From an uncultured Bacteroidales bacterium (lineage in GTDB: Bacteria > Bacteroidota > Bacteroidia > Bacteroidales > WCHB1-69): DNA of 36,281 nucleotides. Below the pieces are notes generated by a model that was not told where the DNA came from, ran no database searches, and worked only from the letters and a program-made list of their open reading frames with translations. Both the position numbers and the translations under genes were made by a program. This document shows positions 2,569 to 30,095 of the stretch, piece after piece (within the stretch, counting starts at the first letter, position 1; every line of letters begins with the position of its first letter). The DNA is taken from the NCBI GenBank assembly GCA_905235135.1, contig CAJOKR010000037.1:1-36281 (forward strand), in the 5' to 3' direction.

Positions 2569-3372
2569 CTAATCCTTGATTCTGAAATTTAGAACTTGCA
2601 GGAAGTCCTTCAACTCGGGGTTCTGCTCCAGCATGTTGTTGACCTTGTCCTCGCTGGTGTAGATTACCTTCTTCTTCTCGTGCTCGTGGATGACGAACTC
2701 TATGTCGTTGACGTTCAGCTGGAAATTGTTGCGCCAGAACTCCAGCATGGCGCGTTTGCTCATTTCGAGCTGGTTCTTCTGGAAGTCGTTCTCCACATCC
2801 ACGTAGATAATGTCGTTTTCGTAGCGGGGTGGGTAGTCGCGCAGCTGGTGGTAGAAGGCCGGCTTCTTCTGGAAGATGGCGTCCACCATCCGGGTCCAGC
2901 ACTCCTCGAAGGATTCCGTCGCGGCGGGTGCCTCGGTTGGCGGATTTGCGGTCACATCGTCATTGGTGACGGGTTGTGTTTCATTCGTTTGAGCGACAGC
3001 CGTATTTGCATCATCTGCGGGTTGTTGTAGAGACGCAGCGTGCTGCGTCTCTATAATTTGGGTATCCGTTTCCGTGACCTGGGCCTCGGAATCGGGTGGG
3101 GTGGGGGCCTCTGCGGATTGCGGGGTTGCGACGGTTTGCGCCACGACAGGATTTTGCGTCGCGACAACCGGTTGCTGCACCTGTTGGGCGAGATGCCGGG
3201 TTTGGGCCGTCACCTCCTTGATGGTGGGCAGCGGCTGAATCGGGGTGAAACCGGCGAATTGGAGGCCTTGTCTGGAGATCTGGGGTTCTGCAGGGGCGAT
3301 GCGGACTGAAGCATCTTCTGCGGCGGAACCTGCGCCTTCCGGGATGTTATCGCTCCTGCGATTGCCTCGCAC
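2569..3372 (-). CDS. dnaX: DNA polymerase III tau C-terminal region, in the +1 frame relative to dnaX
   Basis: This frame overlaps the end of the ATPase part of dnaX by 26 bases. It encodes a Pro/Ala/Thr/Gln-rich linker (about residues 30-145) followed by a folded, charged domain (about 150-267, FEECWTRMVDAIF to NPELKDFLQVLNFRIKD). That domain resembles the C-terminal region of Bacteroidota DnaX, which binds the polymerase alpha subunit. The only formal start is a GTG inside the upstream gene, so I infer that it is made as part of tau by frameshifting, or that the gene is broken. The linker contains ETQHAASLQQ, encoded by a 28-bp palindromic repeat. In related genomes dnaX is normally one reading frame of about 600 or more residues; joining the two pieces here would give about 640. 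Confidence 0.8.
   Translation of the reverse strand: MRGNRRSDNIPEGAGSAAEDASVRIAPAEPQISRQGLQFAGFTPIQPLPTIKEVTAQTRHLAQQVQQPVVATQNPVVAQTVATPQSAEAPTPPDSEAQVTETDTQIIETQHAASLQQPADDANTAVAQTNETQPVTNDDVTANPPTEAPAATESFEECWTRMVDAIFQKKPAFYHQLRDYPPRYENDIIYVDVENDFQKNQLEMSKRAMLEFWRNNFQLNVNDIEFVIHEHEKKKVIYTSEDKVNNMLEQNPELKDFLQVLNFRIKD
3027..3054. repeat. 28-bp palindromic element, in frame inside the tau linker
   Basis: The arms are GTAGAGACGC and GCGTCTCTAT around the centre AGCGTGCT. The element is read on the minus strand as part of IIETQHAASLQQ with no frame disruption. Confidence 0.85.
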
Positions 3373-4477
3373 GCTGACGCTTATAGACGTAGTTGGCGTT
3401 GATCTGCATCAGACAGAGCTCCACCGAAAGCCGCTTGTTGTTCGACATCTTGTAGTTGAAGTCGCACTGGTTGGCCAGTTCGAGGGCGCGGGTGAGCAGC
3501 ATCCGGTCGGCCCGCTGCGACTGCTCCTGCAGCCGTGCCTTGATGCTGTCGGAGACCTGCAGCAGCTGTATCGTGCCCGGACTCTGTGCGATGAGCAGGT
3601 TGCGGATATGGGAGGCTAATCCGGAGATGAAATTCTGGGCATCGAAGCCCTTTGCAAGGATGTCGTCAAGGAGCAGCAGGGCGCCGGAAACATCGTCGCT
3701 CAGCACGATGTCGATGACTTTGAAGTAGTTGTCAACATCCAAGACATTGAGGTTGCTGATGGTCTCCTTATAGGTGATGTTCTTGCCGGTGAAGCTGACG
3801 AGCTGGTCGAAGATGGAGAGGGCGTCGCGCAGGGCACCGTCGGCCTTGGCAGCGACCACACGCAGAGCATCCTCCTCGGCGGTGACACCCTCGTTTTGCG
3901 CCACAAATTGCAGATGACGCACGATGTCGTTATCGTTAATGCGCTTGAAGTCATACACTTGGCAGCGCGACAGAATAGTCGGCAGAATCTTGTGCTTCTC
4001 CGTGGTGGCCATGATGAACTTGGCGTAGGCGGGCGGCTCCTCCAGCGTTTTCAGGAAGGCGTTGAAGGCCGCGCCGGAGAGCATGTGCACCTCGTCGATG
4101 ATATAGACCTTGTATTTGGCCCCTTGCGGTTGCACGCGCACCTGCTCGACCAACTCGCGGATGTCCTCCACGGAGTTTTTCGAGGCGGCGTCGAGCTCGA
4201 AGACGTTGAAAGAGGCCGAGTTATTGAACGACTGGCACGACTCGCATTCGTTGCAGGGTTCGAAGTCGTCGGTGAGATGTTCGCAGTTGAGGGCTTTGGC
4301 GAAGATACGGGCGCAGGTGGTCTTGCCCACGCCACGCGGTCCGCAGAACAGGAAAGCTTGTGCCACCTGGTTGTTGCGGATGGCGTTCTTGAGGGTCGCC
4401 GTGATGGTCTCCTGCCCCACCACAGAGCTGAAAGTTGAGGGTCTGTATTTCCGTGCCGATACGATGAAATTATCCAT
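3347..4477 (-). CDS. dnaX: DNA polymerase III clamp-loader ATPase (gamma-like; N-terminal part of tau)
   Basis: A 376-residue AAA+ clamp-loader subunit. It loads the beta sliding clamp at replication forks. Visible motifs are Walker A GPRGVGKT (46-53), zinc-binding cysteines at 65, 75, 78 and 81, Walker B with DExx box IIDEVHML (127-133 region), sensor 1 ATTE (157-160) and the arginine-finger motif SRC (170-172). The start at 4477 (MDNFIVSARKYRPSTF) was chosen because that is the conserved DnaX N-terminus; the 45 codons upstream look non-coding. The protein ends just after the domain III helix (VELCLMQINANYVYKRQ) at a TAA, exactly where E. coli gamma ends. The rest of tau continues in the +1 frame. 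The sequence at the stop is AGGAG-CGA-TAA-C. Confidence 0.93.
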   Translation of the reverse strand: MDNFIVSARKYRPSTFSSVVGQETITATLKNAIRNNQVAQAFLFCGPRGVGKTTCARIFAKALNCEHLTDDFEPCNECESCQSFNNSASFNVFELDAASKNSVEDIRELVEQVRVQPQGAKYKVYIIDEVHMLSGAAFNAFLKTLEEPPAYAKFIMATTEKHKILPTILSRCQVYDFKRINDNDIVRHLQFVAQNEGVTAEEDALRVVAAKADGALRDALSIFDQLVSFTGKNITYKETISNLNVLDVDNYFKVIDIVLSDDVSGALLLLDDILAKGFDAQNFISGLASHIRNLLIAQSPGTIQLLQVSDSIKARLQEQSQRADRMLLTRALELANQCDFNYKMSNNKRLSVELCLMQINANYVYKRQRARQSQER

Positions 4478-4512
4478 AATGGTCCAGTTTTTGTCGCTAT
4501 AAATCGAATCGG

Positions 4513-4520
4513 CAAAGATA
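4513..4520 (-). promoter_or_regulatory. Promoter -7 element for dnaX
   Basis: The minus strand reads TATCTTTG, matching TAnnTTTG, 35 bp upstream of the dnaX ATG. A T-rich tract lies upstream, but I see no clear -33 element. Confidence 0.5.
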
Positions 4521-4560
4521 CGAAAAAATGATGAATGTTGAATGGTGAATGTTGAATATT

Positions 4561-5115
4561 TCAAGGTTTGTTGCGGACGAGCTCCCTCGTCGTTTTCCGA
4601 GCCTCCTTCCACCTCGGGAAGTAGCGGTCCATCAGCGCGTGGAAGCGGGGACTGTGGTTGGCCTCGATGAGGTGGGCGAGCTCGTGTACCACCACGTGCT
4701 CAATGCACCATTCGGGCAGCAACAGCAGGTAGGTGCTGAAGCAGATGTCGCCGGTTTTCTTGTTGCAGGCACCCCAGCGCGAGATGGTGGGCTTGTAGGT
4801 AATCCGCGTCGGCCGAACATCCATCAACGCGGTATATTTCAATAACATAGGCTGTATAAGTGCATCCAATCGCTGCGCCGCCTCACGAGCCTGTTCCTTC
4901 GTTTCCAACGGCAGCTGGCTGTAGAAACTGTACCGCTGTTGGTTCGCCGTGAGCTGTCGCTGTAACGCCTTTTGGATCCACGCTTCGTTGCCGCGGATGA
5001 ACCGATCCACCTCGCTCCTAGGCACCCCATACGGCGCACTCACATGCAGGTCGCCATTGCTCACCACCCGCATCGACAACCGCCGCGTCCTTCTATATGT
5101 AATTGTTATCTTCAT
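4561..5115 (-). CDS. YgjP/SprT-like zinc metallopeptidase (DUF45)
   Basis: 184 residues. The zinc-metallopeptidase signature HELAH is at 144-148, and the third ligand region EANHSPRFHALM follows at 151-162, as in YgjP-like M48-clan proteins. The preceding WGACNKKTGDICFSTYLLLLP is also typical of the family. No signal peptide is visible, so it is probably cytoplasmic; the in vivo substrate of this family is not well known. The start at 5115 (MKITITYRRT) was chosen over an ATG ten codons upstream, because the latter would overlap the preceding gene. The gap to the upstream stop codon is 8 bp, indicating an operon with the two small envelope genes. Confidence 0.88.
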   Translation of the reverse strand: MKITITYRRTRRLSMRVVSNGDLHVSAPYGVPRSEVDRFIRGNEAWIQKALQRQLTANQQRYSFYSQLPLETKEQAREAAQRLDALIQPMLLKYTALMDVRPTRITYKPTISRWGACNKKTGDICFSTYLLLLPEWCIEHVVVHELAHLIEANHSPRFHALMDRYFPRWKEARKTTRELVRNKP

Positions 5116-5123
5116 ACAAACTC

Positions 5124-5615
5124 TTATGTGTGAAACCTTACACACCCGCTACGTACCACGGTGTCGGCGGTGCGGAGGATGAAGAAGCATTCGTAGGGCA
5201 TGTTGCGATAGAGGTCGCGCAAGGTGATGCGCCAGGTACGGTCGCGACGCGCATGAGCCGTGACGGTGTACCAATCGGGGGTGTTTGGTATTCGGTAGCA
5301 GAGGATGACCGCCTCGGCACGCGGGGCTTTCGGGGCGAGCTGGCAGGTGAAGGTCACCGAGGGATGCCGACCCGAAAGAAGCGACCAGCTGGAGTCAACT
5401 CTGACATCTGCAGGGGTGAATCGGATGAGCGGGGAACCCTCGTCGTGCGGCTGCAGAGGTGTCTGCGCGTGTTCGGCCACCTCGCGGGTGTGTCGCTCGG
5501 TGCGCGTCATGAAGAACAGTCCCGCCACGACAAACACCGCGATAACGACTGCAATCCACAGATAACCAGTGGATTCCGTTGTTTCCGAGTCAGTGCGCGG
5601 GAAGGGGCTGGTCAT
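5124..5615 (-). CDS. Hypothetical single-pass membrane protein
   Basis: 163 residues of unknown function. A short N-terminal tail is followed by one strong membrane segment (about residues 18-36, YLWIAVVIAVFVVAGLFFM). The rest is a compact, probably beta-rich extracytoplasmic domain (VTFTCQLAPKAPRAEAVILCYRI). The ATG begins one base after the TGA of the upstream lipoprotein gene (TGACATG), so the two are likely translationally coupled and may work together in the envelope. I do not recognise a family. Confidence 0.75.
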   Translation of the reverse strand: MTSPFPRTDSETTESTGYLWIAVVIAVFVVAGLFFMTRTERHTREVAEHAQTPLQPHDEGSPLIRFTPADVRVDSSWSLLSGRHPSVTFTCQLAPKAPRAEAVILCYRIPNTPDWYTVTAHARRDRTWRITLRDLYRNMPYECFFILRTADTVVRSGCVRFHT

Positions 5616-5616
5616 G

Positions 5617-6066
5617 TCAATATTCTGACCGTGAGAACAGCTCTAACCGCCAGTGGTCGCCGTACTCGTCGTCAAATTCAATGAAGAACTCCTTGCGCGA
5701 CAGCCGCATGATGTCGGCGGTGAAGACATAATGCTTCCCGAAGAAGGTGTAGTCGAACGAGATGGTTTTCGCCTTGGGGTCCAGAATGTAAGTGGCGAAC
5801 GACGACTGCCGCAGCTGCCCGTTGCGGATACCCGTCAGCGACATCACATGGTCGGCGTACATGTAGTAGAAGGTCGTGGGGGCGTAGCCGACATATTCGG
5901 TGGAGTCGATTTCCACACCGTTGAGGTAGGTGTGCGATACCTGCCACGAGCCCACAATCCGGTACTCGCTGGAGTAGAAGCTGGGCACGCCTTCGGGATA
6001 GTTTTCGCAGGAGGCGAACGCGATGGCCGCCATTATCACCGCAATAAAGATTTTCAATCGTTTCAT
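5617..6066 (-). CDS. Small lipoprotein with lipocalin-like domain
   Basis: 149 residues. The start at 6066 gives MKRLKIFIAVIMAAIAFASC, a lipoprotein signal with lipobox AFAS-Cys20. The mature part (GSWQVSHTYLNGVEID, then ADHVMSLTGI, TISFDYTFFG, EFFIEFDDEYGDHWRLELF) has the alternating strand pattern of lipocalin-like domains of small Bacteroidota lipoproteins. Twelve codons further upstream lies an alternative ATG, but that extension enters a palindromic repeat region and lacks a signal peptide. It is coupled to the downstream membrane protein gene. Ligand and role are unknown. Confidence 0.8.
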   Translation of the reverse strand: MKRLKIFIAVIMAAIAFASCENYPEGVPSFYSSEYRIVGSWQVSHTYLNGVEIDSTEYVGYAPTTFYYMYADHVMSLTGIRNGQLRQSSFATYILDPKAKTISFDYTFFGKHYVFTADIMRLSRKEFFIEFDDEYGDHWRLELFSRSEY

Positions 6067-6090
6067 ATTATTGGTCGTTTTATGGGTGTC

Positions 6091-6118
6091 GTAGAGACGC
6101 AAAATATTGCGTCTCTAC
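6091..6118. repeat. 28-bp palindromic element
   Basis: Arms GTAGAGACGC / GCGTCTCTAC around AAAATATT. It lies 18 bp past the stop codon of the sirtuin gene (minus strand), between it and the lipoprotein gene. Confidence 0.9.
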
Positions 6119-6135
6119 ATACATCATGTATCCAA

Positions 6136-6819: not shown

Positions 6820-6854
6820 AATATAATGGTTATAGGTTATTGTATCGGGATGTT

Positions 6855-6882
6855 GTAGAGACGCATGGCCATGCGTCTCTAC
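6855..6882. repeat. 28-bp palindromic element (perfect)
   Basis: Arms GTAGAGACGC / GCGTCTCTAC around ATGGCCAT, a perfect palindrome. It begins two bases past the stop codon of the phosphofructokinase gene on the minus strand. Confidence 0.92.
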
Positions 6883-6883
6883 A

Positions 6884-7993: not shown

Positions 7994-8016
7994 AACGTCC
8001 GTTGTTTTAGAAAGGG

Positions 8017-8024
8017 CAAAGATA
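8017..8024 (-). promoter_or_regulatory. Promoter -7 element for phosphofructokinase
   Basis: TATCTTTG on the minus strand, matching TAnnTTTG, 24 bp before the ATG at 7993. Confidence 0.5.
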
Positions 8025-8205: not shown

Positions 8206-8273
8206 ACGTGCAGATACGCGCGATACGCGGAGATAATCATACGTGCAGATCCGTGTGATCCGCGGAGATTATC
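8206..8273. repeat. Two tandem copies of a 33-bp unit overlapping a stop codon
   Basis: Units at 8206-8238 and 8241-8273 share ACGTGCAGAT ... CGCGGAGAT(A/T)ATC, with differences mainly in the middle. The second copy covers the TAA stop (8271-8269) of the giant surface protein. Confidence 0.75.
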
Positions 8274-11200
8274 CTTTCACTACTTTCCTTACGGCGACGG
8301 TCTTGTCACCCGCCACGGCCTTCACGAAATAGATACCTTTGGCATACCGCGACAAATCGATCTGCGCGGTCTGTCGAGACGCATAATTTTGCGTCTCCAC
8401 CACACCCAACAACCGCCCGTATGCGTCGCACAGGTGCAATTCCACCTCGCTCCATTCTTCATTCTGCATGATACATTCTACATTGACGATGTTGGAGGTG
8501 GGGTTGGGATAGACGGTCAGACCGGAGGCCGGGTCGTGTTCTTGGACACCGTCCGGACTGAGGTAGAAGGTGATTTCCTCCGCGTCGTCGCTGTGATAGC
8601 CGTCGTCGCAATGCGCCTCCACTTGCACCCTGTAGGTGGTATGGGGCTCCAAGTTTTCGAGCGTGTAAGGATGCGACGAGGTGTAGGTGGTCTGCCAGTT
8701 CGTGGCATTGGTATAGCGGATAACCCAAAAATCGGGATCCGGCCCCAACTGCACCCAGTCCACCGTGGCACTATTGGCGGTGATGTCGGAGACCGTGATG
8801 AAAGCCGGAGGTTCGCAAGACTGCCCGTAGTCGCCTTCCACACAGGATGTTTGCAGCGCGAAACCGCTTATGTAGTACGCTTGGTTAACAGGATGGATGG
8901 AACGCAAGTACAACGTGAGCGGGCCGACGGAAGAGGTGACCATAATGGGATTTTCGTGGACGCGGCTGTCGTACAACGGAACGCCCATGGTGTCTTTTCC
9001 GTCGTAAATAAGCAGGTAGTCGTTCGGGAAATACTGGTTGTTGTCATTCGGATACCAAAAGCCGAAGACCCGTACACCCATGCCCGGTTCCAACGGATTC
9101 AGCGTCACGGCCGCATCGCCGTCCTCTGTAAAGCTGCGGTTCGGGCCGCCGTCATCATAAATAACGCCATCGCAGACGGTAATAGAGCGCCGACCGAAAT
9201 TGGGAATGTAATAGGCTTGGGGCATGGCGTAAACGGGACCCGCCCACGCGCTGGCATCGTCGCCGCCGCAGTTGGCGCGCACGTAGAACTCGTAGTCCAC
9301 ACCTGAGCTGAGAGGTAACGAGAACGGTTCGTTGGGGGTGGAAACGATGGTTCCCGTCCCTAACCTGTATCCGGCAGGACCGTACTGGACATCCCAGGCA
9401 CTGGCCGATCCGCCTTCTTCCCACTCCAGGGTGATGTCGTTACTCCAATATTGGTCGTCTTTCACGTGCAAATGCTTCGGGACAACACAACTCACGCAGC
9501 TCACCGCCAAGTCGAACGCCCGATAGAGTTCTCCCTCCTCGAACGAACGGGTCACGTGCAACGTGATCGGGCCTGTGGAGGACTGCACCGAAAGCACTTT
9601 CCCGGCTTCGGCGGTGGCGAGCAACCTGCCTTCGGTGCCAATTCCGTCATAAACCCGGAAAATCTCATTCAGATTGCTCCAGCCCTCCAACTTCACGAAA
9701 TGTCCGGGTTCGTCCGGCATCAGCACTATGACGTTGTCGATGTCCGCTGCGTGATGGCGACCAGCGACACCGCCTTCGTCATAGAGGTGCCCGCCGCAAA
9801 GGACAAGGGTGTCCGTGCCGCTATGGTTCACCACGTAGGCATTGGGCACGAAGGTGATGGAATCCGCCCAAGGGCTGGCGTTGTCGGTGTCGCACAGCGA
9901 GCGCACATAGACATCGTATGTGGTGCCGGGGATAAGGTTCTGCAGCGTATAAGGGTTCGTGGTCACCACCAAGGAAGTCCCGCCACCATGAAGGAAGCCT
10001 TCCTCCCCGTATTCAATCTCCCATCTCTCAGCGGTGCCGTTTTCCACCCAGGAAAGGACAACCGCCGTGTCCTGAAAACTTTCAATATTGAGCGCCGTGG
10101 GGATAAAACACGAAGGGGCGGGAATGCAACTGACGGTGAAATCGAAGGGCGGATCATTAACGTAATGGTAATAATTAAACATCTGAATAGTAAGAGGGCC
10201 TGTGGAGGACTGCACTGAGACCAGTCCTGAGGTGACGGGATAATTATAGAAAAGAAGTGTGCCATCCGTTCCAATGCCATCGTAAATTTTAAGATAGTCA
10301 GGATCTGGAAGAAAAGAAACGGCCCCTAAGGATGAGTTGAGATATCCATCCAATCTAACCAATGAGTTTGGCGTAGTCGGAAAAATGGTGACCTCATAAT
10401 GCATATTAGACGGATTATTAAAGTTATAGGGGCCCCAAATATGTCCATCACACATATTTAGATGTACATTTCCAGACCCATGAACAATACTGCCAAACTG
10501 ATAATTGTCCGGATAAAGAATAGGAGGAACAATATATACAAGTTCATTGGTCCATTCACTATTGTCATTCTCTCCGCAAACGGACTGTACTCGAAAATGA
10601 AATAAATGTCCTGGGAGACATGTTGGGTGAGTGAAAGTAGGGGAATAGACAGTTAAGAGGGTGTCTTTCAGGAAATCTCCGTTCCCGGCATACTCCCGGT
10701 ACTCTATATTCCATGCCGTTGCATAGTCGCGTTCTGTCCACGAAAGGGTGACGATACTGTCATGCGCATCTATGATGGAAAAATCGATTGGTCTTCTACA
10801 TGTGATACACCGTATATCGAAGTTTATCCCGACATTATCTTCCAGATAAACAGTCAATATGCCCGAAGTGGATTCTATAAACAACCAACTATTGAAGTCA
10901 CTGCTATATCCATCATTTATGTATTGTTTTTCATAAATGATATTTGCGGTGGTATCGAGACCATCATAGATTCGGATATTCGATGAATTATGCAACGTGT
11001 AAAATCCCCATAATTGTACGTTACTACCCGTTTCTCCTGATTCGATAACCAAGGTGGTTTCCCCTTGATTGTCAAATGAGACATGTTCGAAACAAGTTTG
11101 AAGTGTTTGTGTCCTGCCTGGATGCACATTGAATTGTCCAACGGTGACCGAGGCGGGCCCTGCCCAGATGCTCAACTCACTGTCGGCGCACATCGTTCTA

Positions 11201-14200
11201 ATGTAAAAATCGTAAGGAAGGTTATCCAGCCCTTGCAGGAGAAGACTGTCACCCGTAACAGGAACTCTGCTTCCTTCTCCGATAATGAAACCATGGTAAC
11301 CATACTCCACTTGGTACGTGGCGGACGTGTCAGAACCTGTCCAAGACAGGAGGATATCTCCGTTCTGATAGGTGGTGGCGATGAAGTCTTCAGGGGTGGC
11401 GCACGAGGAACACACGACACTCATATCCAAGTCATAACAAAGATGCTGGTCTTCTACGGGTGAGATTCGTATGGTTAGCGGACCCGAGATAGATTGAATT
11501 GTCGGAAACGTTCCGTCAGCCCGCGGATGCTCCAACAACAAAACGCCATTGGTGTCCGCGCCGTCATAGATTCTTATTTCATCGTTTCCGTATGTGTAGA
11601 ATGAACCTTGAACCTGTACATAATGTCCTGGCATATCAGGATATAGTGTTAGCGTTGTGGCTTCCGAATGTTCACAGAAGAGTTCCTCCGGACCAGCAGG
11701 ATCGTAAAGATGCCCGCCACAAATGGAAAGGGAATCGTGTCCTTGGGTGGGGAAAAGATACGCGCCCGGAATCTGAATCGTCAAAGGCCCGACCCACAAT
11801 TCGTCCTGCACATCGCATTGAGGGTGTACATAGAAGTCCACGGCAAGACCGCCATACGGGATGTCATTCCATCGGTAAGTGTGCGAATGGGCGTGTGTAT
11901 GGATTTTCGAACCATTACCATGTATAATATCATGCAGCACATATTCGATTTCCCACTCCACATCGAAATCACCGGCTAACCACGACAGTGTGAACGTGCT
12001 GTCTGTGATGTCGGAAAAGGCCGCATTCATGGCCACAGGACAGGAATCCACGCACTCCACCTCGAAATCAAAGCCTAAGTAGGACACCTCATTCCACTGA
12101 TAGACGCTCATGTCCAACGTGAGCGGACCGGTCAACGACCGAAGGACGGGAATGTTTTCATCGTAAGGGGTGAATATATTATTGTCATCGCCTTCGAATT
12201 CACACATTTTCAGCCCATTGGTGTCAACCCCGTCAAAAACACGGATCAAATCGGGCTGATTGAAAAATCGGGTGCCGCTTAGCTGGACAAATCCCCCCTG
12301 CGTTTCCGGGAAAAGAGTGACGATGGCATGTTGATGCACAAAATTGTTGTCGGGAACATCCTCGTCATATAAATGGCCGCCACAAAGGATAACCGCATAT
12401 TTTCCAGCCGGGGGAATGTGGTAGGCGTTGTCTCCCTTAAGCAGATAGAATGGCTCGGAATAATCGCTGACATCACCACTGTCGCACTGAGAACGAACAT
12501 AAAATGCGTAAGATTGATGCTGCGCCAGATCCTGGACGGAGAAGTGGTTCGTGCTGACCACGGCGGAAGTGCCAGTGCCCAAGTCGAAGCCCACCGGGCC
12601 GTATTCCACTTCCCAAGACTCCGCCGGGGTCAAATCCGCCCAAGTCAAGGAGATGGAGGTGTCCGAAGCGGCGGTTGCTGTGAGGTTCACAGGCGGTTTG
12701 CACGTGATGCACTGCACCTCGAAGTCGAAGCCGTTTGTGTTACCCCAACCGCCGTCATCACCGGAAATCATCTCTATGGTGAGCGGACCGTTCGTGGAAA
12801 CCAGTCTCGGCAGAGTGTCCGTGACATAACCGGTAGGATCGAGAACCCCGTCATTCTGCTCATACAAAAGTTGTCCGTTGGTGTTGTCACCGTCATACAC
12901 TCGTATGGAATTCCAGAGATGGATGTTGGTCGTTCCCGTCAACTGGATATACTGTCCAGACGTTTCCGGCCATAGCGTCACCTCAACATGGCAGTCGTTG
13001 CTATACAGGCCGTCCGGACCGCCGTCATCATAGAGGTGTCCGCCGCACATCGTGACATCATACTGGCCCTCTTTGGGGAAGACAAAACCGTCGGGCAGAA
13101 AACGATGCGTGAGCGGCCCGACGAAAAGGCTTTGGTTGGTCGCATTGCAATGGGAACGGACATAGAAGTCATACGTGCCTGCCGAATCAAAAGGCTGAAC
13201 GGTATAGGGATTCTGTGTCGTGTGAACCATCGTTCCGGCACCGGCTCCCGGCGTGAATCCCGCAGGGCCATACTCGATGTCCCACGACTGTGCATCTCCG
13301 GTTTCAGTCCACGAAAGCGTGACGGAATTGACCGTGAACTGGTCCATTGACAAATCTATCGGACGTGCGCAATCCGTGCAGGACACGGTCATCGAGAAAT
13401 GATTGTCGGGAAGGGAATCATAAAACCATGGCAAAAACTGCGGGTCGTAGGCCACAATTGTCAACGGACCCGATATGGATTGTACCAAGATGTTCTGGCT
13501 ATAGGGGGTTATCCAACCCGAAAGGAACTTCGGGCTTTGGTATAGCACCGTTCCTTCCGTTCCCACCCCGTCATAAACGACAAACCAATGATCCCAATAG
13601 GCGTATTCCTGATGGATTGTTCCTTGCAGCTGGACAAGCTCTCCCTCGTGTACGGGCATCAGGGTCACCGAACGGTCCGGGGCATCCCACCCGAGTTGGT
13701 AGTTCACTTGTCCTCCGCACATCCCCACGATGTCGGAGGTTTGCGTCATGTTATAAAGGTTAGGGTTAGGGGTGTAAACAACAGGCTCCGGCCACCAAAC
13801 ACTGCCTTCACTGCCGCAAAGTGCACGGACATAGAATGAATACGTGTTGCCGGCCGGCAGGTTGGGTATTGTAATATAAGGCTCTGTCACGGTGTCGGAT
13901 GTGCCTAAAGAGGGATGGACGCCATTCGGGCAGAAGGTTACTTCCCAGGAATCCACGCCGCTGTGGGAAGCCCAAGCCAGCGTGATACTGTCGCCCGCGA
14001 CACTTTCGATATGAACGCTGTCCGGAGTGGGGCAGGCGTTACAGCTCACCGAAAGGGCAACGCTGTTGTTCGGGATGCAGAGGGCGCGAATCGTCAGCGG
14101 ACCGCTTTCCGACACAATGCCGTCCGGAGACGGACTCAGACGAACACCTGTCGTGTCCCGTCCGTCAAAAAATTCCAAGCAGTCGGTTTGGGTATTTTCT

Positions 14201-14787
14201 ATGGTGACAAAGCTGTTGGCGGACTTTGGGAACAACGTGAGGAGGTTGTCGCCCAAGTCGCCTTCGAATTGGATGGTGCCGTCGCAAATCCGCGCCGCAG
14301 AGACCCGGTCTAACGACACAGTGAATGTGCTGGACGTGTTGGGAGCGGAAAAGTAGGTGACAGGATCCGACCAACTGCTTGTTTCGCCTTGCCCGCAACT
14401 GGAACGCACGTAAAAGTCTTTGAGTGAGCCGATGCCAACACCCGTGATGGTGCAGGTCGTGTCGGTGACATGCAGGATGGTTCCTGTGCCGTGTTCGAAA
14501 CCGGCGGGACCGTACTCAACGTCCCATGCAACCCCTGCTCCTTGCTCCGACCACGACAAGGTGACAGAAAACGGCCCTACCGAGTCCACCCTGATAGGAG
14601 TCGGTCTCAGACATTCCGAGCAATGGACGTGCAAGTCAATACCGCCGTCGAATCGCAAATGGTCGGTCAACCGCAACGTCAGAGGACCCGACAAGGACTC
14701 CACAACATCCATAGTCCCGATGAGCGAATCATGGGTGGTCTGGAACAAGAGCGGTCCATCTGTGCCAATTCCGTCAAACACGCTCAA
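8269..14787 (-). CDS. Giant CUB-like/Fn3-like repeat surface protein with T9SS type A sorting domain (main part)
   Basis: 2172 codons that continue the reading frame broken at about 14.8 kb. The protein is an array of about 210-residue units. Each pairs a CUB-like beta domain (LCGGHLYDEGG, VTLFPETSG, IRVYDGxDTNG, GPLTI, FDFEVxC) with an Fn3-like domain (VTLSW, WEVEYGPAGF, GTGT, YDFYVRSxC). I count ten Fn3-like copies here and one more in the upstream part. The C-terminal 80 residues (LTVYPNPTSNIVNVEC to VRKVVKG) are a T9SS type A sorting signal, so it is probably a surface adhesin or glycan-binding protein. The first possible start is a TTG inside a CUB-like repeat, so this is not an independent gene. 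A 28-bp palindrome is read in frame inside the sorting domain (VVETQNYASRQT). The segment at about 10.4-11.4 kb is much more AT-rich than its neighbours. Confidence 0.9.
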   Translation of the reverse strand: MSVFDGIGTDGPLLFQTTHDSLIGTMDVVESLSGPLTLRLTDHLRFDGGIDLHVHCSECLRPTPIRVDSVGPFSVTLSWSEQGAGVAWDVEYGPAGFEHGTGTILHVTDTTCTITGVGIGSLKDFYVRSSCGQGETSSWSDPVTYFSAPNTSSTFTVSLDRVSAARICDGTIQFEGDLGDNLLTLFPKSANSFVTIENTQTDCLEFFDGRDTTGVRLSPSPDGIVSESGPLTIRALCIPNNSVALSVSCNACPTPDSVHIESVAGDSITLAWASHSGVDSWEVTFCPNGVHPSLGTSDTVTEPYITIPNLPAGNTYSFYVRALCGSEGSVWWPEPVVYTPNPNLYNMTQTSDIVGMCGGQVNYQLGWDAPDRSVTLMPVHEGELVQLQGTIHQEYAYWDHWFVVYDGVGTEGTVLYQSPKFLSGWITPYSQNILVQSISGPLTIVAYDPQFLPWFYDSLPDNHFSMTVSCTDCARPIDLSMDQFTVNSVTLSWTETGDAQSWDIEYGPAGFTPGAGAGTMVHTTQNPYTVQPFDSAGTYDFYVRSHCNATNQSLFVGPLTHRFLPDGFVFPKEGQYDVTMCGGHLYDDGGPDGLYSNDCHVEVTLWPETSGQYIQLTGTTNIHLWNSIRVYDGDNTNGQLLYEQNDGVLDPTGYVTDTLPRLVSTNGPLTIEMISGDDGGWGNTNGFDFEVQCITCKPPVNLTATAASDTSISLTWADLTPAESWEVEYGPVGFDLGTGTSAVVSTNHFSVQDLAQHQSYAFYVRSQCDSGDVSDYSEPFYLLKGDNAYHIPPAGKYAVILCGGHLYDEDVPDNNFVHQHAIVTLFPETQGGFVQLSGTRFFNQPDLIRVFDGVDTNGLKMCEFEGDDNNIFTPYDENIPVLRSLTGPLTLDMSVYQWNEVSYLGFDFEVECVDSCPVAMNAAFSDITDSTFTLSWLAGDFDVEWEIEYVLHDIIHGNGSKIHTHAHSHTYRWNDIPYGGLAVDFYVHPQCDVQDELWVGPLTIQIPGAYLFPTQGHDSLSICGGHLYDPAGPEELFCEHSEATTLTLYPDMPGHYVQVQGSFYTYGNDEIRIYDGADTNGVLLLEHPRADGTFPTIQSISGPLTIRISPVEDQHLCYDLDMSVVCSSCATPEDFIATTYQNGDILLSWTGSDTSATYQVEYGYHGFIIGEGSRVPVTGDSLLLQGLDNLPYDFYIRTMCADSELSIWAGPASVTVGQFNVHPGRTQTLQTCFEHVSFDNQGETTLVIESGETGSNVQLWGFYTLHNSSNIRIYDGLDTTANIIYEKQYINDGYSSDFNSWLFIESTSGILTVYLEDNVGINFDIRCITCRRPIDFSIIDAHDSIVTLSWTERDYATAWNIEYREYAGNGDFLKDTLLTVYSPTFTHPTCLPGHLFHFRVQSVCGENDNSEWTNELVYIVPPILYPDNYQFGSIVHGSGNVHLNMCDGHIWGPYNFNNPSNMHYEVTIFPTTPNSLVRLDGYLNSSLGAVSFLPDPDYLKIYDGIGTDGTLLFYNYPVTSGLVSVQSSTGPLTIQMFNYYHYVNDPPFDFTVSCIPAPSCFIPTALNIESFQDTAVVLSWVENGTAERWEIEYGEEGFLHGGGTSLVVTTNPYTLQNLIPGTTYDVYVRSLCDTDNASPWADSITFVPNAYVVNHSGTDTLVLCGGHLYDEGGVAGRHHAADIDNVIVLMPDEPGHFVKLEGWSNLNEIFRVYDGIGTEGRLLATAEAGKVLSVQSSTGPITLHVTRSFEEGELYRAFDLAVSCVSCVVPKHLHVKDDQYWSNDITLEWEEGGSASAWDVQYGPAGYRLGTGTIVSTPNEPFSLPLSSGVDYEFYVRANCGGDDASAWAGPVYAMPQAYYIPNFGRRSITVCDGVIYDDGGPNRSFTEDGDAAVTLNPLEPGMGVRVFGFWYPNDNNQYFPNDYLLIYDGKDTMGVPLYDSRVHENPIMVTSSVGPLTLYLRSIHPVNQAYYISGFALQTSCVEGDYGQSCEPPAFITVSDITANSATVDWVQLGPDPDFWVIRYTNATNWQTTYTSSHPYTLENLEPHTTYRVQVEAHCDDGYHSDDAEEITFYLSPDGVQEHDPASGLTVYPNPTSNIVNVECIMQNEEWSEVELHLCDAYGRLLGVVETQNYASRQTAQIDLSRYAKGIYFVKAVAGDKTVAVRKVVKG
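8373..8400. repeat. 28-bp palindromic element, in frame inside the sorting domain
   Basis: Arms GTCGAGACGC / GCGTCTCCAC (each one base from consensus) around ATAATTTT. Translated on the minus strand it gives VETQNYASRQ within the T9SS domain. Confidence 0.8.
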
Positions 14788-17550: not shown

Positions 17551-17578
17551 GTAAGGGCGAATTATTATTCGCCCTTAC
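17551..17578. repeat. 28-bp palindrome of a second arm type
   Basis: Arms GTAAGGGCGAAT / ATTCGCCCTTAC around TATT. It has the same length and the same GTA...TAC ends as the GTAGAGACGC family, but a different arm sequence. It lies in the 185-bp gap upstream of the 467-residue gene, where I see nothing else. Confidence 0.8.
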
Positions 17579-20136: not shown

Positions 20137-20164
20137 GTAGAGACGCAAAATTTTGCGTCTCTAC
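20137..20164. repeat. 28-bp palindromic element (perfect)
   Basis: Arms GTAGAGACGC / GCGTCTCTAC around AAAATTTT, 13 bp past the pyrF stop codon (minus strand). Confidence 0.92.
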
Positions 20165-24475: not shown

Positions 24476-24503
24476 GTAGAGACGCAAAATTTTGCGTCTC
24501 TAC
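24476..24503. repeat. 28-bp palindromic element (perfect)
   Basis: Arms GTAGAGACGC / GCGTCTCTAC around AAAATTTT, in the 158-bp gap between the nagB fusion and the type B sorted protein. A TATTTTTG promoter-like element follows 2 bp later. Confidence 0.92.
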
Positions 24504-24513: not shown

Positions 24514-24567
24514 CAACAAAATGGTCGGTTTTTCGTTATACTAAAAATTTGTAGCAAATATGATTTT

Positions 24568-26328: not shown

Positions 26329-27181
26329 TCTCCCACATCGTAATCATCTTATACACCAGCGTTGCGGCAAGCACGTCGGAGACCTTGTTGTCGGGTTGCG
26401 GGCAAAGTTCCACCACGTCAAAGCCGACCACGTTGCGGTTTTCGAATACTTTCTGTAAAAACGACAGGGTGGGATACCATTGCAGACCGCCGGGCAGCGG
26501 CGTACCCGTGGCGGGCAGTATCGACGGATCGAAGCCGTCTAAATCCACGGTGATATAGACGTTGTTGGTGAGGCGGTTAACGGCCTTTTCCATCCAATCT
26601 TCCTGATTGTGAATAAGATGCGCGTAGAAGATGTTCTCCGGCACGACGTTGTGCATCTCATCGGTACATACATTCCGGATGCCGACCTGCACCACGCGGG
26701 CGCACTCCTGGGCGCGGCGCATCACGCAGGCGTGGTTGTAGGGTGAGTCGTGGTAGCTGTCGCGAAGGTCCGCATGCGCGTCGATCTGCAGCACCGTGAG
26801 GTCCGGGTAGGTCGCGGCCATCGCGCGGATCGCCCCCACGGAAACCGAGTGCTCGCCACCGATGAGAATAGGCCGTTTGCCGAGTTCCATAAAGTGGCGC
26901 ACCCGGCTATAGACCGAGTCCACCATCCTTTCGGGTGTACGCAGGTCGTAGTCGTGGTGGTCAGTGTGGATGCCGGCCTTCCAAGCTTCGTACTGGTACT
27001 GGATGTCGTACAGCTCCAAGCTGTCGGAGGCATCGAGGATGGCCTGCGGACCCTTGTCGGCACCCTTCACGAAGGTGCTCGTGCCGTCATAGGGCACACC
27101 GAGGATGACGTAACGGGCGTCGTCCAGCTCGTAGTGCCGGTCGTCGTCCATATCGAGGAAATGGGGCATGGTTTTTATCAT
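26315..27181 (-). CDS. speB: Agmatinase / arginase-family ureohydrolase
   Basis: 288 residues. Mn-binding motifs of the ureohydrolase family are present: GGEHS (His111), QIDAHADLRDSY (Asp134, His136, Asp138) and VDLDGFDPSILPATGTP with the last two Asp ligands. GVPYDGTSTF (28-37) is the usual N-terminal motif. The likely reaction is agmatine to putrescine and urea, feeding polyamine synthesis; other guanidino substrates are possible. The start may be codon 1 or codon 5. The neighbouring MTAN-like nucleosidase would recycle methylthioadenosine from spermidine synthesis, which fits a polyamine role. Confidence 0.9.
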   Translation of the reverse strand: MIKTMPHFLDMDDDRHYELDDARYVILGVPYDGTSTFVKGADKGPQAILDASDSLELYDIQYQYEAWKAGIHTDHHDYDLRTPERMVDSVYSRVRHFMELGKRPILIGGEHSVSVGAIRAMAATYPDLTVLQIDAHADLRDSYHDSPYNHACVMRRAQECARVVQVGIRNVCTDEMHNVVPENIFYAHLIHNQEDWMEKAVNRLTNNVYITVDLDGFDPSILPATGTPLPGGLQWYPTLSFLQKVFENRNVVGFDVVELCPQPDNKVSDVLAATLVYKMITMWEITKR

Positions 27182-27266
27182 AATGGTTAAGGGTGTGGGT
27201 TTATGGTTTAAGGAGTTAGCAGTTAGTAGTTATTCCAAAAAGGCCCGAAGGCCCGAAGTATGACAG

Positions 27267-27295
27267 CCCAGGGTGGAGCGAAGCGGAGCCCTGGG
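27267..27295. repeat. Hairpin repeat CCCAGGG...CCCTGGG
   Basis: A 7-bp perfect stem around a 15-base purine-rich loop. It lies in the repeat-dense gap between speB and the nucleosidase gene, and is preceded by two copies of GGCCCGAA (27242-27257). Confidence 0.7.
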
Positions 27296-27316
27296 TTATT
27301 GAATAGAGTTCGAATA

Positions 27317-27371
27317 GAGTTACACCGGAGTTACACCGGAGTTAGACCGGAGTTAGACCGGAGTTAGACCG
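27317..27371. repeat. Five tandem 11-bp units, GAGTTA(C/G)ACCG
   Basis: The first two units have C and the last three G at the seventh position. A sixth partial unit merges directly into the 28-bp palindrome at 27374. Confidence 0.9.
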
Positions 27372-27373
27372 GA

Positions 27374-27401
27374 GTAGAGACGCAAAATTTTGCGTCTCAT
27401 T
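27374..27401. repeat. 28-bp palindromic element overlapping a stop codon
   Basis: The left arm is GTAGAGACGC and the centre AAAATTTT. The right arm is intact only to GCGTCTC and then reads ATT. It includes the TGA stop (27399-27397) of the nucleosidase gene. Confidence 0.88.
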
Positions 27402-27981
27402 TACCAATCAGTTCCACGGGTTCCGTTTGGGAGAGTGCGTCGAGCAGGCGGAGGGTGAAGTCGCAAAGTTTCGGGGAAAGCTCGTGGACGCGCTGTTGCC
27501 AGGTGGCGAGATCGACATCGAGATGGTCGGAGACGATTTTGAAGGAGACGTAGGGCTTCCCGAAGTGTTTGGCGATGCTGTAGAGGGCCGAGGATTCCAT
27601 GTCGAAGCAGTCGGCACGGGTGGTGAGGTCTTGCAGGAACTCGGCCGAATAGACGTGCGGGGAAACGAAACAGTCGGAGGAAAAGAGCTTTCCATCGGTG
27701 GCGTCAGGAACCTCCACGGGCAGGTGGTCGAGGAGCATCGGGTGGTCGAGGAAGGCCGCGCCGCCCGACACAATCTCGGTGACGCGGATGATGCTTCCCA
27801 CGGGCGCGGCGTGTGCGCCGGCGGTGCCGATGTTCAGGATGGTGAACTCTTCGTCACGGTGCTCCTCCATGAACCGGAGCATGGTGTTGGTGGCGTTCTC
27901 GCGGCCGATGCCGCAAAGGTGCACTTTCTCTTTGATGTTTAGGACTTCTTCTTGTACGGCTGCAAATAGGGCGATTTTCAT
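27397..27981 (-). CDS. MTA/SAH nucleosidase-like protein (phosphorylase superfamily)
   Basis: 194 residues, shorter than the usual 230 or so of MTAN. NIGTAGAHAAPVGSIIRV (50-67) is the phosphate/ribose region, and CFDMESSALYSIAKHFGKP (125-143) carries the Met-Glu pair that binds the ribose; Asp152 in IVSDHLD matches the catalytic Asp. It probably cleaves adenine from methylthioadenosine or S-adenosylhomocysteine, or another nucleoside. The start at 27981 (MKIALFAAVQEE) is the conserved family start. The stop codon lies inside a palindromic element, which may have replaced the original C-terminus. speB follows downstream. Confidence 0.85.
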   Translation of the reverse strand: MKIALFAAVQEEVLNIKEKVHLCGIGRENATNTMLRFMEEHRDEEFTILNIGTAGAHAAPVGSIIRVTEIVSGGAAFLDHPMLLDHLPVEVPDATDGKLFSSDCFVSPHVYSAEFLQDLTTRADCFDMESSALYSIAKHFGKPYVSFKIVSDHLDVDLATWQQRVHELSPKLCDFTLRLLDALSQTEPVELIGK

Positions 27982-28011
27982 TTTTATTACGTTTTTTGTT
28001 TGTTCGTGGGG

Positions 28012-28077
28012 CCCCACACTGCTGCTTACGCCTTGTGTGGGGTTAATTGCACTTCGTGCGTTTTGCCTCTTCGAGGC
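28012..28077. repeat. Cluster of three hairpins upstream of the nucleosidase gene
   Basis: CCCCACAC (28012-28019) pairs with GTGTGGGG (28035-28042). GCAC/GTGC (28049-28059) and GCCTC/GAGGC (28065-28077) each enclose TTC. They fill most of the 125-bp gap. No U-run follows on either strand, so a plain terminator is not supported. Confidence 0.65.
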
Positions 28078-28106
28078 TGCTTATGGAATATTTTTTTATT
28101 AACATA

Positions 28107-29792
28107 TTACCGGTTGCCGATGAGTACCCCGGAGACGTTCCAGGCGCTGAAGTAGGTGCCTTCGCGCTGGCCTTGGGGGATGGCGATGGTGAGGGTGTGC
28201 GTGCCGGGGGTGAGGCCGGTGAGGTCGAAATAGACGGGCTGCGTGGCCGTGCCGGGACACCAGCCGGAGCGGGAGTAGTCGGATGAGGAGAGACCGTTCC
28301 AGAAATTGCCGGATGCGGGGTTAAAGACACGGAAGGTGCCGCAATCGCTGCGCCACGGGGTGTGACGGAAGCGCGGTTGCCCGTCGATGAGGATGACGTT
28401 CTCCTTCGGCACGAACTCGTCGCCCGAGTCCCAGCCGCCGTGTCCCGTGCTCAGGTAGCGCAAACGCAGGGATTTCAGCCCCTCGGGAACGGTGAACGTC
28501 ACCGTAAGGCTGTCGGTCTCAAAGAGTTTGCCGTAGTTCTGCCCCGACATCTCCATTACGTTGCAAGTGTTGAAGAGCGGCAGTGTCCAGCAGTGCTCGT
28601 CGGTGTTGCCCGACCATTCATAGCTTTCGGGGTAGGCCTTGAGGTCGAGGGTGATCTTGTGCCCGCCGGCGTCGTAGTTGCCGATGAACGCCCCGATATA
28701 GACATCGCCCTGCAGGAACTGCCGCAAATCGCTGACATCCTGCTTGTAGTAGGCCGCATCCTCCCACTCCTTGTCATTGAGTGAGCGGTATTGGTTGAAG
28801 TGGTGCACGCCGAACGGGGTGAAGAATCGGACCAACTCCACCAACGGGGTGTAGTCCTTTTCCAGTTTGATGCCCTGATACTGTTCGCCATTCTTGTCTG
28901 TGACGACGGGCAACACACCTACGCTGTCGATCAGCGCGTTGAGGAAGCTGATTTTCGAGGCGGGAATCACGAAGATGGAGCCGGTGCGGTCGTAGGCATC
29001 GCCGTTGGATTGCTCGGTCAGCTCCGCGAAAATCTGGTAGTGCGGTGGCAACTGCTTCATGTTCAGTCGTTTCAGGATGATGGTGCCGTTGGAGTAGGGT
29101 AGAACTGTATCGAACGGGACGACCTTGGACTTCGGCAGTTTCGGGTTGAAGCAGATTTGCGCGTCATGGAACACGGGGATGGTGATGACCAGCTTCTCCT
29201 TTTCAAGGTTGCCGAGGGCGCGGCGGTCGGTGTATTGTCCGAGGTCTTGCGGGATGATGTTGGCCAGTTTCTTGTCTTTTTTCACGGAGGCTAACTCAGT
29301 GGCACTGTTGCCGTTGCGCACGAGTTTCACGAGTACGCCGGGCAGGTTGGCAAATCCCGACGAAGCCGTGGCGCGAAATCCGAGGTCCTCGGTGACCCAG
29401 ATTTCCATCTTGTTGGAAAAGAGCGAGGTGGTGTATTTCTTGCAATTGTAGCCGTTCACTTTCTCGGTCTTTTCTAATGTGTAATCGTTATCGTTTTGGA
29501 TGCCGAACCCGCAGTAATATTGCTCATTGTCGGTGTAATAAAGCTGGTAGAAAGCGGTGTCTCGGCTGTAGTCGATGTAGGTGATATGCTGTGCGATGCC
29601 GGGAATGGGATTTTCCTCGGTCGGGTCAGCGGAAGCGATGCGCAGGCAGTTCTGCGCCGCGAGCACCTCGGTGTGAGAGGTGTCGCCGCCCGCGTCCACG
29701 GCGTAGGAGTTGTAAATCAGGCGGTACTGCGCGTTCGCTACAAAAGCCGCCGTTACTGCGGCAAAAAGGAGGAGTAAGGTTCTCTTTATCAT
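28107..29792 (-). CDS. Secreted PNGase F-like peptide-N-glycosidase with GLPGLI-like N-terminal domain
   Basis: 561 residues. The signal peptide is residues 1-21 (MIKRTLLLLFAAVTAAFVAN). Residues about 22-200 resemble the GLPGLI family, with NLPGVLVKLV near 149-158 in place of GLPGLI. Residues about 235-385 match the N-terminal and 400-561 the C-terminal lobe of PNGase F (GHGGWDSGDEFVPKENVILI, TPWRSDCGTFRVFNP, SSSDYSRSGWCPGT, FSAWNVSGVLIG). Asp268 in DAYDRTG corresponds to the catalytic Asp60 of PNGase F, and Glu459 probably to Glu206. It should release N-glycans from glycoproteins outside the cytoplasm. No T9SS sorting domain is visible, so periplasm or outer membrane vesicles are possible sites. 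The start at 29792 was chosen for the signal peptide. Confidence 0.87.
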   Translation of the reverse strand: MIKRTLLLLFAAVTAAFVANAQYRLIYNSYAVDAGGDTSHTEVLAAQNCLRIASADPTEENPIPGIAQHITYIDYSRDTAFYQLYYTDNEQYYCGFGIQNDNDYTLEKTEKVNGYNCKKYTTSLFSNKMEIWVTEDLGFRATASSGFANLPGVLVKLVRNGNSATELASVKKDKKLANIIPQDLGQYTDRRALGNLEKEKLVITIPVFHDAQICFNPKLPKSKVVPFDTVLPYSNGTIILKRLNMKQLPPHYQIFAELTEQSNGDAYDRTGSIFVIPASKISFLNALIDSVGVLPVVTDKNGEQYQGIKLEKDYTPLVELVRFFTPFGVHHFNQYRSLNDKEWEDAAYYKQDVSDLRQFLQGDVYIGAFIGNYDAGGHKITLDLKAYPESYEWSGNTDEHCWTLPLFNTCNVMEMSGQNYGKLFETDSLTVTFTVPEGLKSLRLRYLSTGHGGWDSGDEFVPKENVILIDGQPRFRHTPWRSDCGTFRVFNPASGNFWNGLSSSDYSRSGWCPGTATQPVYFDLTGLTPGTHTLTIAIPQGQREGTYFSAWNVSGVLIGNR

Positions 29793-29819
29793 AATTATTC
29801 GATTTTCCAAAAGAAGTGG

Positions 29820-29827
29820 CAAAAGTA
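29820..29827 (-). promoter_or_regulatory. Promoter -7 element for the PNGase F-like gene
   Basis: TACTTTTG on the minus strand matches TAnnTTTG, 28 bp before the ATG at 29792. Confidence 0.5.
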
Positions 29828-29869
29828 CACAAAATGCGGATATGCACTTTCCCTATTCGATAATTTTTG

Positions 29870-29877
29870 TATTTTTG
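29870..29877 (+). promoter_or_regulatory. Promoter -7 element facing the structured RNA region
   Basis: TATTTTTG matches TAnnTTTG on the plus strand, divergent from the PNGase promoter. The nearest coding start on this strand is more than 400 bp away, which suggests a non-coding transcript. Confidence 0.5.
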
Positions 29878-30067
29878 CCGTGTCAAACGTCCGTGGTCAT
29901 TGATAGGTTCGCGGGCGGGCGACGAAACATATAAAAGGCGTTGAGTCAACGTCTTATCTGCGGCTTGTAGAACTTCGCAAATTCAAACCGTCCGCAAGGT
30001 AAGGCAATGGTCAATGTCCATGGTTTGTATATTTCCGGTCGGCACACGATTCGTCGTGTCCGCATCC

Positions 30068-30095
30068 GTAGAGACGCAATGCATTGCGTCTCTAC
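30068..30095. repeat. 28-bp palindromic element (perfect) inside the RNA candidate
   Basis: Arms GTAGAGACGC / GCGTCTCTAC around AATGCATT. The flanks ATCCG (30064-30068) and CGGAT (30099-30103) extend the stem. Confidence 0.92.

What the first reader, a model, noticed from the sequence alone, without database searches (positions are those of the whole stretch)
3027..30095. Family of 28-bp palindromes with fixed arms and a co-varying centre
Eight copies (3027, 6091, 6855, 8373, 20137, 24476, 27374, 30068) share arms GTAGAGACGC / GCGTCTCTAC. The eight central bases differ (AAAATTTT three times, AAAATATT, ATGGCCAT, AATGCATT, AGCGTGCT, ATAATTTT) yet stay largely self-complementary. Paired changes in the centre suggest selection or a copying process that keeps a hairpin. 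Several copies sit within 20 bp of a stop codon. No transposase is in the window. Similar small palindromes are known in cyanobacteria and Rickettsia; I do not know of a described mobiliser for this one.
Basis: seen in the sequence. Interest (0 to 1): 0.72.

Follow-up and report, generated by a model that had tools for sequence, protein, structure and literature searches.

The report
Swappable 28-base palindrome cassettes
The repeats belong to a 28-base palindrome family with 184 copies in this bacterial genome; close matches sit inside and beside genes of one transposase family that likely moves them, and related species carry different palindromes at the same spot in the same gene, so copies are probably overwritten in place.

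Summary
In detail: eight copies in the window, 125 exact-arm copies in the genome, 184 with a looser pattern, reversed-pattern control 0. The family is a "double-foot" REP (GTAG...CTAC) tied to TnpA-REP/RAYT transposases close to the described subclass 2.4. Of the 80 best-matching such genes from named genomes, 40 carry a double-foot palindrome inside and 22 beside the gene, and copies inside and beside one gene match. The window's genome has such a gene on another contig.

The centre does not vary by stepwise compensation: centres are discrete classes that diverge together with their RAYTs; 9 of 12 near-class variants are unpaired decay.

What I did not find in print is in-place swapping. One slot in an alpha-2-macroglobulin-family gene holds CCATGG, AATGCATT, AAAATTTT or GATTAATC centres in same-genus species. 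The window copy at 8373 lies in a type IX secretion sorting tail; in related tails that slot holds at least seven palindrome classes between conserved flanks. Arms change together with centres (no AA/GG hybrid in 322 intact-foot copies), pointing to exchange at the GTAG feet, where an E. coli RAYT is reported to cut. RAYT catalysis is inferred; no clean empty site was found.

The parts
3027..3054 (.). 28-bp double-foot palindrome, centre AGCGTGCT (decayed); in frame in ORF 2569-3372(-), reading IETQHAASLQ
   Evidence: frame
6091..6118 (.). 28-bp palindrome, centre AAAATATT, an unpaired change from AAAATTTT
   Evidence: the orthologous copy in same-genus G012 has AAAATTTT
6855..6882 (.). 28-bp palindrome, centre ATGGCCAT, where the ORFs of a SIR2-family gene and a phosphofructokinase gene meet
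8373..8400 (.). 28-bp palindrome (2 arm mismatches), in frame (VETQNYASRQ) inside the type IX secretion sorting tail of a 2172-aa fibronectin-type-III protein; the swappable slot
8269..14787 (-). Host gene of the 8373 slot: fn3 repeats and Por_Secre_tail (residues 2092-2169)
17551..17578 (.). Ninth copy, sister class (decayed GTAGGGGCG-AATAATTATT-CGCCCCTAC)
20137..20164 (.). 28-bp palindrome, centre AAAATTTT, intergenic; identical orthologous copy in same-genus G051, absent at that place in ten other relatives, whose spacers have diverged
24476..24503 (.). 28-bp palindrome, centre AAAATTTT, at the 5' side of an ORF with a type IX secretion signal domain (CHU_C); degraded copy at the same place in G013
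27374..27401 (.). 28-bp palindrome (3 arm mismatches), centre AAAATTTT; contains the stop codon of the phosphorylase-family ORF 27397-28017(-)
30068..30095 (.). 28-bp palindrome, centre AATGCATT; the corresponding place holds TTGCGCGCAA in G006 and an arm-changed third palindrome in G013 (flanks only partly conserved)

Best explanation
These are double-foot REP elements, 28-base palindromes from GTAG to CTAC that occur inside and beside genes of one RAYT (REP-associated tyrosine transposase) group, which likely mobilises them and would overwrite an old copy in place with a new one by exchange at the GTAG feet. Shown: copy number, discrete centre classes, matching copies inside and beside RAYT genes, co-divergence of RAYT and palindrome, 3'-end bias, in-frame residence in genes, and different palindromes at the same slot of related genes between conserved flanks. 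Inferred: that the RAYT makes the cut, that the intermediate is a single-stranded hairpin, that the exchange unit is the stretch between the two feet, and that the class in play is set by whichever RAYT lineage was active. Coding slots would tolerate the swaps because two of the three reading frames stay open (VET...SLQ and CRD...VST) while the third reads the TAG of the foot.
For: Cognate transposase: 13 of 30 same-genus RAYT loci carry the palindrome inside the gene, five of the 13 decayed. Of 80 named loci, 40 carry it inside, 22 within 400 bp, 47 either; density 0.94/kb in gene and 0.58/kb in flanks against 0.016/kb beyond 800 bp. Where both exist (13 loci), the closest inside and flanking copies differ by 1.2 bases on average against 6.9 shuffled, 0 of 2000 shuffles as low; RAYT divergence tracks palindrome divergence, Mantel r 0.53, p 0.0005, 38 genes. 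The own genome has such a RAYT (C86:47-622) with decayed AAAATTTT copies inside and downstream. The group's profile matches E. coli TnpA-REP 4er8 at E 7e-7, and 11 of 11 members match NCBIfam REP_Tyr_transpos, the own protein below the curated cut-off. Genomes with the AAAATTTT-type RAYT hold 10-59 copies of that class, the other 35 a median of 1 (p 4e-4). Flanking direct repeats at 320 copies stay within shuffles, as expected for Y1 rather than DDE transposition. In-place swap: A2M slot, own genome CAATGCATTG against TGCCATGGCG in relatives, left flank 23 of 24 bases identical, same frame. Sorting-tail slot: 40 of 90 tails match the filled pattern; among 16 pairs with flanks at least 85% identical 6 have different occupants (at most 5 of 9 residues alike), and 28 of 46 pairs at 80%. 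On DNA, C86 and G014:C18 share 20 of 21 left-flank bases up to the foot but hold different arm families. GH2 slot: GTAGGGGCG-AATAATTATT in G014 and G020 against GTAGAGACG-GGGCGCGCCC in G051. Arms agree as a pair in 314 of 322 copies with intact feet; none is an AA/GG hybrid. E. coli RAYT is reported to cleave the GTAG motif (PMC3733652, passage).
Against: No biochemical evidence for this RAYT group was seen. The CCATGG class shows no link between copy number and RAYT presence (p 0.37), and three genomes without a detected AAAATTTT-type RAYT still hold 16, 21 and 53 copies of that class. No clean empty site was found on DNA, so insertion itself is not shown and the net inserted length is unknown; one protein, P0323, lacks exactly nine residues against the filled tail P0321, a candidate empty site of 27 bases. 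Of 15 sites filled in both G014 and G020, 11 hold the same class, so swapping is not the rule. In the A2M slot the AAAATTTT group has other flanks and G045 uses another reading frame, so some differences could be separate insertions; eight of 21 rows have no intact copy. Eight copies have unequal arms, one of them at both variable positions. Palindromes with paired feet differ from the canonical REP, and strengthening the REP stem is reported to abolish cleavage by the E. coli enzyme (passage).
Confidence: 0.68

Rival explanations
1. Arm-mediated gene conversion: the short common arms anneal with another palindrome during replication or repair and the centre is copied over, without any transposase.
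For: Arms and feet are shared by the classes; swaps keep flanks largely intact. CCATGG copy number does not follow RAYT presence. Eight of 322 copies have unequal arms.
Against: Homology would be 9 bases per side, and 7 of 9 between arm families. Swaps also exchange arm families, yet none of 322 copies is an AA/GG arm hybrid. Palindromes track RAYT lineages.
Confidence: 0.15
2. Independent insertions at a hotspot: the slots are preferred targets that were empty in the ancestor and were filled separately by different classes.
For: A pyrimidine precedes the foot on 527 of 640 sides; slots lie in loops; G045 uses another frame at the A2M slot; P0323 is a candidate empty tail.
Against: Slot-less tails with both flanks alike are few among 90 (P0323, in part P0312, P0315, P0316). 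At the A2M slot own and CCATGG copies have the same frame and a left flank that differs in one base of 24.
Confidence: 0.15
3. Maintained hairpins under selection (transcript ends or mRNA stability): the centre covaries because base pairing is selected.
For: Copies cluster at 3' gene ends: nearest end is 3' in 42 of 54 intergenic copies, median distance to a 3' end 23 bp against 108 bp to a 5' end. Single strands fold at -8.4 to -12.9 kcal/mol in five examples.
Against: Near-class variants are mostly unpaired (9, against 3 paired doubles). The commonest class is stably asymmetric. The four central bases would be loop, yet are self-complementary in most classes.
Confidence: 0.05

Closest known systems
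Double-foot REPs with TnpA-REP subclass 2.4 (RAYT group 4), Quentin et al. 2018, PMC6006769 (passages seen)
   Same: GT[AG]G at one end and C[TC]AC at the other; [quoted passage not shown] abundant in Cyanobacteria and Bacteroidetes.
   Different: The passages propose a central deletion of an inverted dimer as origin. Lineage-specific centre classes, host-gene slots with different occupants, and in-place swapping were not in the passages I saw. The own RAYT has YIENNV at the Y motif, not YIxNNP.
GTAG-tagged REPs and REPINs with RAYTs (PMC3733652: first two parts of the text and passages; PMC3116915: listing only)
   Same: GTAG foot, hairpin, 3'-end bias, occasional residence inside genes.
   Different: The GTAG foot there is unpaired and at one end; here both ends bear it and it is part of the stem.
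RAYT 'orthoswitch' in Pseudomonas and Stenotrophomonas (PMC3686654, passages seen)
   Same: Orthologous RAYT genes flanked by different REP classes; class abundance follows the cognate RAYT with exceptions after its loss.
   Different: Described there at RAYT genes. Here the change is seen at ordinary host genes and spacers, within the 28 bases.
Small dispersed repeats of cyanobacteria (Elhai 2008; recalled, paper not seen)
   Same: Very short mobile repeats; the TTGCATGCAA 28-mer matches exactly on Anabaena and Planktothrix plasmids and less exactly on Nostoc ones.
   Different: Identity with a named SDR family was not tested.
Rickettsia palindromic elements (recalled; described in PMC3733652, passage)
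   Same: Palindromes in frame inside genes.
   Different: Another tag (CGTC) or longer element, with no dedicated transposase known according to that paper.

Membership tests
Double-foot REP of TnpA-REP subclass 2.4 | GTRG foot at one end and CYAC at the other | tested here: met
Double-foot REP of TnpA-REP subclass 2.4 | Copies flank the tnpA-REP gene | tested here: met
   22 of 80 named loci within 400 bp; 58 of 80 without
Double-foot REP of TnpA-REP subclass 2.4 | Copies in frame inside the tnpA-REP gene between HuH and Y | tested here: met
   40 of 80 loci; 39 in-gene 28-mers in frames 28 / 11 / 0 for frames 0 / 1 / 2, open frames being partly by construction; a minority lie nearer the 5' end of the gene
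Double-foot REP of TnpA-REP subclass 2.4 | Protein motifs NH[IFV]H, WQ, YIxNNP (as given in PMC6006769) | tested here: inconclusive
   WQ met; HuH is NHIH in the own protein, DHVH or DHIH in some rows; the Y motif has V or I in place of P in the A1 rows, YIxNNP in many of the named rows; no subclass profile was available
Double-foot REP of TnpA-REP subclass 2.4 | Long HuH-to-Y spacing (median 88 residues in that paper) | tested here: met
   Own protein: H89 to Y182
REP-associated tyrosine transposase (RAYT) | Sequence homology to TnpA-REP | tested here: met
   4er8 E 7e-7 with the A1 profile; REP_Tyr_transpos matched by 11 of 11; own protein 39 bits and L143 protein 60.5 bits, both below the curated 80
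REP-associated tyrosine transposase (RAYT) | Cleaves its REP at GTAG as single strand | not testable with these tools
   Needs protein work
Canonical GTAG REP | GTAG foot unpaired, beside the stem | tested here: not met
   Foot is paired in all five sequences folded
DDE-type MITE | Target-site duplication | tested here: not met
   Flanking direct repeats of 1-9 bases stay within the range of 300 shuffles at 320 copies
REPIN | Mostly close inverted doublets | not tested
   Pairs about 50 bp apart occur (G014_C3 25072/25124, 55221/55272) but were not counted against expectation

The most novel reading that the evidence does not exclude
RAYTs of this group are cassette exchangers: they cut both GTAG feet of a resident palindrome and replace the whole stretch between them with their own class, so REP slots persist for long evolutionary times while their content is overwritten, including inside host proteins such as type IX secretion sorting tails, where nine to ten residues are rewritten at a stroke.
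Probability: 0.4. Interest if true: 0.85.

Novelty: new variant of a known kind. Interest (0 to 1): 0.63.

Why it matters
How REPs multiply and what RAYTs do has long been open. Slots in conserved genes with swapped occupants give a readable record of the reaction: its boundaries, its reading-frame limits and its direction. That makes the RAYT question testable by resequencing and simple substrate assays. It would also be a route by which a transposase rewrites short loops of secreted proteins without breaking the gene.

Tried and rejected
Own-genome Y1 genes first found by Pfam (C111, C6, C94, C20) are framed by other repeat families, and a search of their loci found no close copy of this one apart from a sister-class copy in L016; they were dropped as cognates. 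The L133/L134 RAYT has a copy about 350 bp away in a neighbouring spacer only. A recurrent 1857-bp spacing in viral contigs looked like one phage seen in several samples rather than a transposon; only its ORFs were listed. Clean empty sites: tried with window copies in relatives, in all loci held at the time, in G014/G020/G006 and on cyanobacterial plasmids; spacers had turned over, no counterpart was found or the site was filled, so none was obtained on DNA. A text search for GTAGAGACG gave 143 papers; the 20 listed are on unrelated subjects by their titles. 'Not in print' for in-place swapping rests and on passages, not whole texts, in an open-access library without bioRxiv; the GBE 2017 RAYT paper is not held and Elhai 2008 was not seen. 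GH2 rows other than G014, G020, G012 and G051 were dropped from the argument, as their alignment is uncertain.
Full report
What is there. The eight palindromes of the finding are at the stated places and are not chance. A ninth, of a sister class with GGGGCG-type arms, is at 17551. The genome holds 125 copies with the exact arms and 184 with GTAGAGACG-N10-CGTCTCTAC; the reversed pattern gives none. All 23 same-genus relatives have 3 to 237 copies, and 6 of 16 genomes of other families of the order have 1 to 16. A 30-base query with the TTGCATGCAA centre matches 23 plasmid records, exactly over the 28 bases in three (Anabaena cylindrica, two of Planktothrix) and less exactly in Nostoc, Persicobacter and others; the pattern is in 109 stretches of viral contigs.

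Centres. Of 115 distinct copies held from the genus, 76 have a perfectly symmetric centre, and nine classes account for 91. The commonest, CGCCATGGCA/TGCCATGGCG, is not symmetric: it has one T-G pair on one strand and C/A on the other, and that exact form is in 29 of 40 genomes. A process that copies one arm onto the other would remove this. Of the 12 variants within two changes of a class, 9 are unpaired and 3 paired. The window's AAAATATT at 6091 is such an unpaired change, as its orthologue in G012 is AAAATTTT.

The transposase. A Y1 search with Pfam first gave four own genes framed by other repeats. A relative, L143, showed a RAYT with the palindrome in frame inside the gene and again just downstream. 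Searching with it found matches in 24 of 40 genus genomes, including one on own contig C86; 13 of the 30 loci inspected have the palindrome inside the gene, five of them decayed, and several have the same one beside it. In 80 named loci, mostly Bacteroidota but also Calothrix, Planktothrix, Kuenenia, Methylomonas, Spirochaetota, Chlorobiota, Desulfobacteraceae and Falkowbacteria, 40 have it inside and 22 beside the gene, 33 have neither; the in-gene density is about 60 times that further out. Inside and flanking copies match (10 of 13 loci identical), and palindrome divergence tracks RAYT divergence. Genome-level coupling is mixed: clear for the AAAATTTT class, absent for the CCATGG class. Similar exceptions are reported for Pseudomonas (PMC3686654, passages).

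Where copies sit. In 2.08 Mb of G000, G014 and G020, with a crude ORF caller, 87.6% of bases are coding but only 20 of 74 copies lie wholly inside an ORF; among intergenic copies the nearest gene end is 3' in 42 of 54, and 28 of 59 distances to a 3' end are 20 bp or less. The base before the foot is a pyrimidine on 527 of 640 sides, and flanking direct repeats do not exceed shuffles. The 20 in ORFs read in frame 0 (15) or 1 (5), never in frame 2, where the foot gives TAG; frame 2 copies could not be counted inside an open ORF, so this is by construction.

In-place swapping. Comparison of G014 and G020 (about 90% identical) gave 15 places filled in both: 11 hold the same class, one of them as a 48-bp inverted form in G020, and 4 hold different palindromes. 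Of the four, one (G020_C21:94314 and G014_C3:55221) has both flanks conserved apart from small indels, one has the right flank only, and two have weaker flanks or decayed copies. Nine or more further copies have no counterpart because the spacer has changed. The place of the window's 30068 copy holds AATGCATT here, TTGCGCGCAA in G006 and a third form in G013, with partly conserved flanks. Coding slots are sharper. In an alpha-2-macroglobulin-family gene, homologous proteins read RRDVPWRVST, GRDVSGNVST, GRDAKFCVST or RRDDVHIVST at one place. DNA from 20 genus genomes plus G014 shows CCATGG-type copies in G014, G009, G002, G005, G040 and G001 (G009 and G005 altered); AATGCATT in the own genome, in the same frame, with 23 of 24 left-flank bases unchanged and a right flank one codon shorter; AAAATTTT in four with other flanks; GATTAATC in G003; and GTGCATGCAC in G045 in another frame. 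Eight of the 21 rows have no intact copy, three of them with visible remnants. The gene tree around the slot has mostly weak forks and needs 10 label changes where 7 is the least possible, so it does not by itself date the swaps. In a GH2 gene the slot holds GTAGGGGCG-AATAATTATT in G014 and G020 or GTAGAGACG-GGGCGCGCCC in G051. The window's copy at 8373 lies in a type IX secretion sorting tail. Among 90 related tails 40 match the filled pattern at that slot, with at least seven classes, between conserved flanks; some of the other 50 hold decayed forms. Of 16 pairs with flanks at least 85% identical 6 differ in occupant. On DNA, own C86 and G014:C18 share 20 of 21 bases up to the foot with different families inside. 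Over 322 copies with intact feet the two arms agree at both variable positions in 314, and none is an AA/GG hybrid, so the unit that changes seems to reach to the feet.

Reading. A RAYT-borne double-foot REP fits the anatomy; the described subclass 2.4 is the closest kind (PMC6006769). That E. coli RAYT cuts at GTAG (PMC3733652, passage) offers a cause for exchange limited to the feet, but the catalyst is inferred. Gene conversion through the arms and repeated insertion at hotspots remain possible. Insertion itself was not caught: no clean empty site was found on DNA, though the tail P0323 lacks exactly nine residues against P0321.

Noticed in passing
L019 1399-2382, G000:C20: A second own RAYT with its own different repeat family (TAGGAG-type, CGGCATTCCTGCCG stem) beside the gene and coding both ends of the protein.
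   Followed up: partly
L018 51-1253, G000:C94: A RAYT-like N-terminal half runs in one frame into a C-terminal half that looks Fic-like by eye; no family search was made.
   Followed up: no
L017 (G000:C6) and L016 (G000:C111): Short Y1 genes with the Y--Q--HH pattern of subclass 1.2 lie among inverted repeats (AGGGCTCACTGCGTTCACCCT; CCGTGTGGTG), although that subclass is said to lack typical end structures.
   Followed up: no
L252, L254, L259, L271 (RAYT genes): In-gene palindrome regions have grown into several copies or short tandem peptide arrays (e.g. WRVST repeats), so RAYT linkers expand by the repeats.
   Followed up: no
L372 16155 (G014:C1) against L407 about 18800 (G020:C10): A 28-bp palindrome in one species is a 48-bp inverted dimer form in the other, a natural pair for the central-deletion origin proposed in PMC6006769.
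   Followed up: partly
window 28107-29822: Peptide-N-glycosidase F homologue (N- and C-terminal domains) beside the copies at 27374 and 30068.
   Followed up: no
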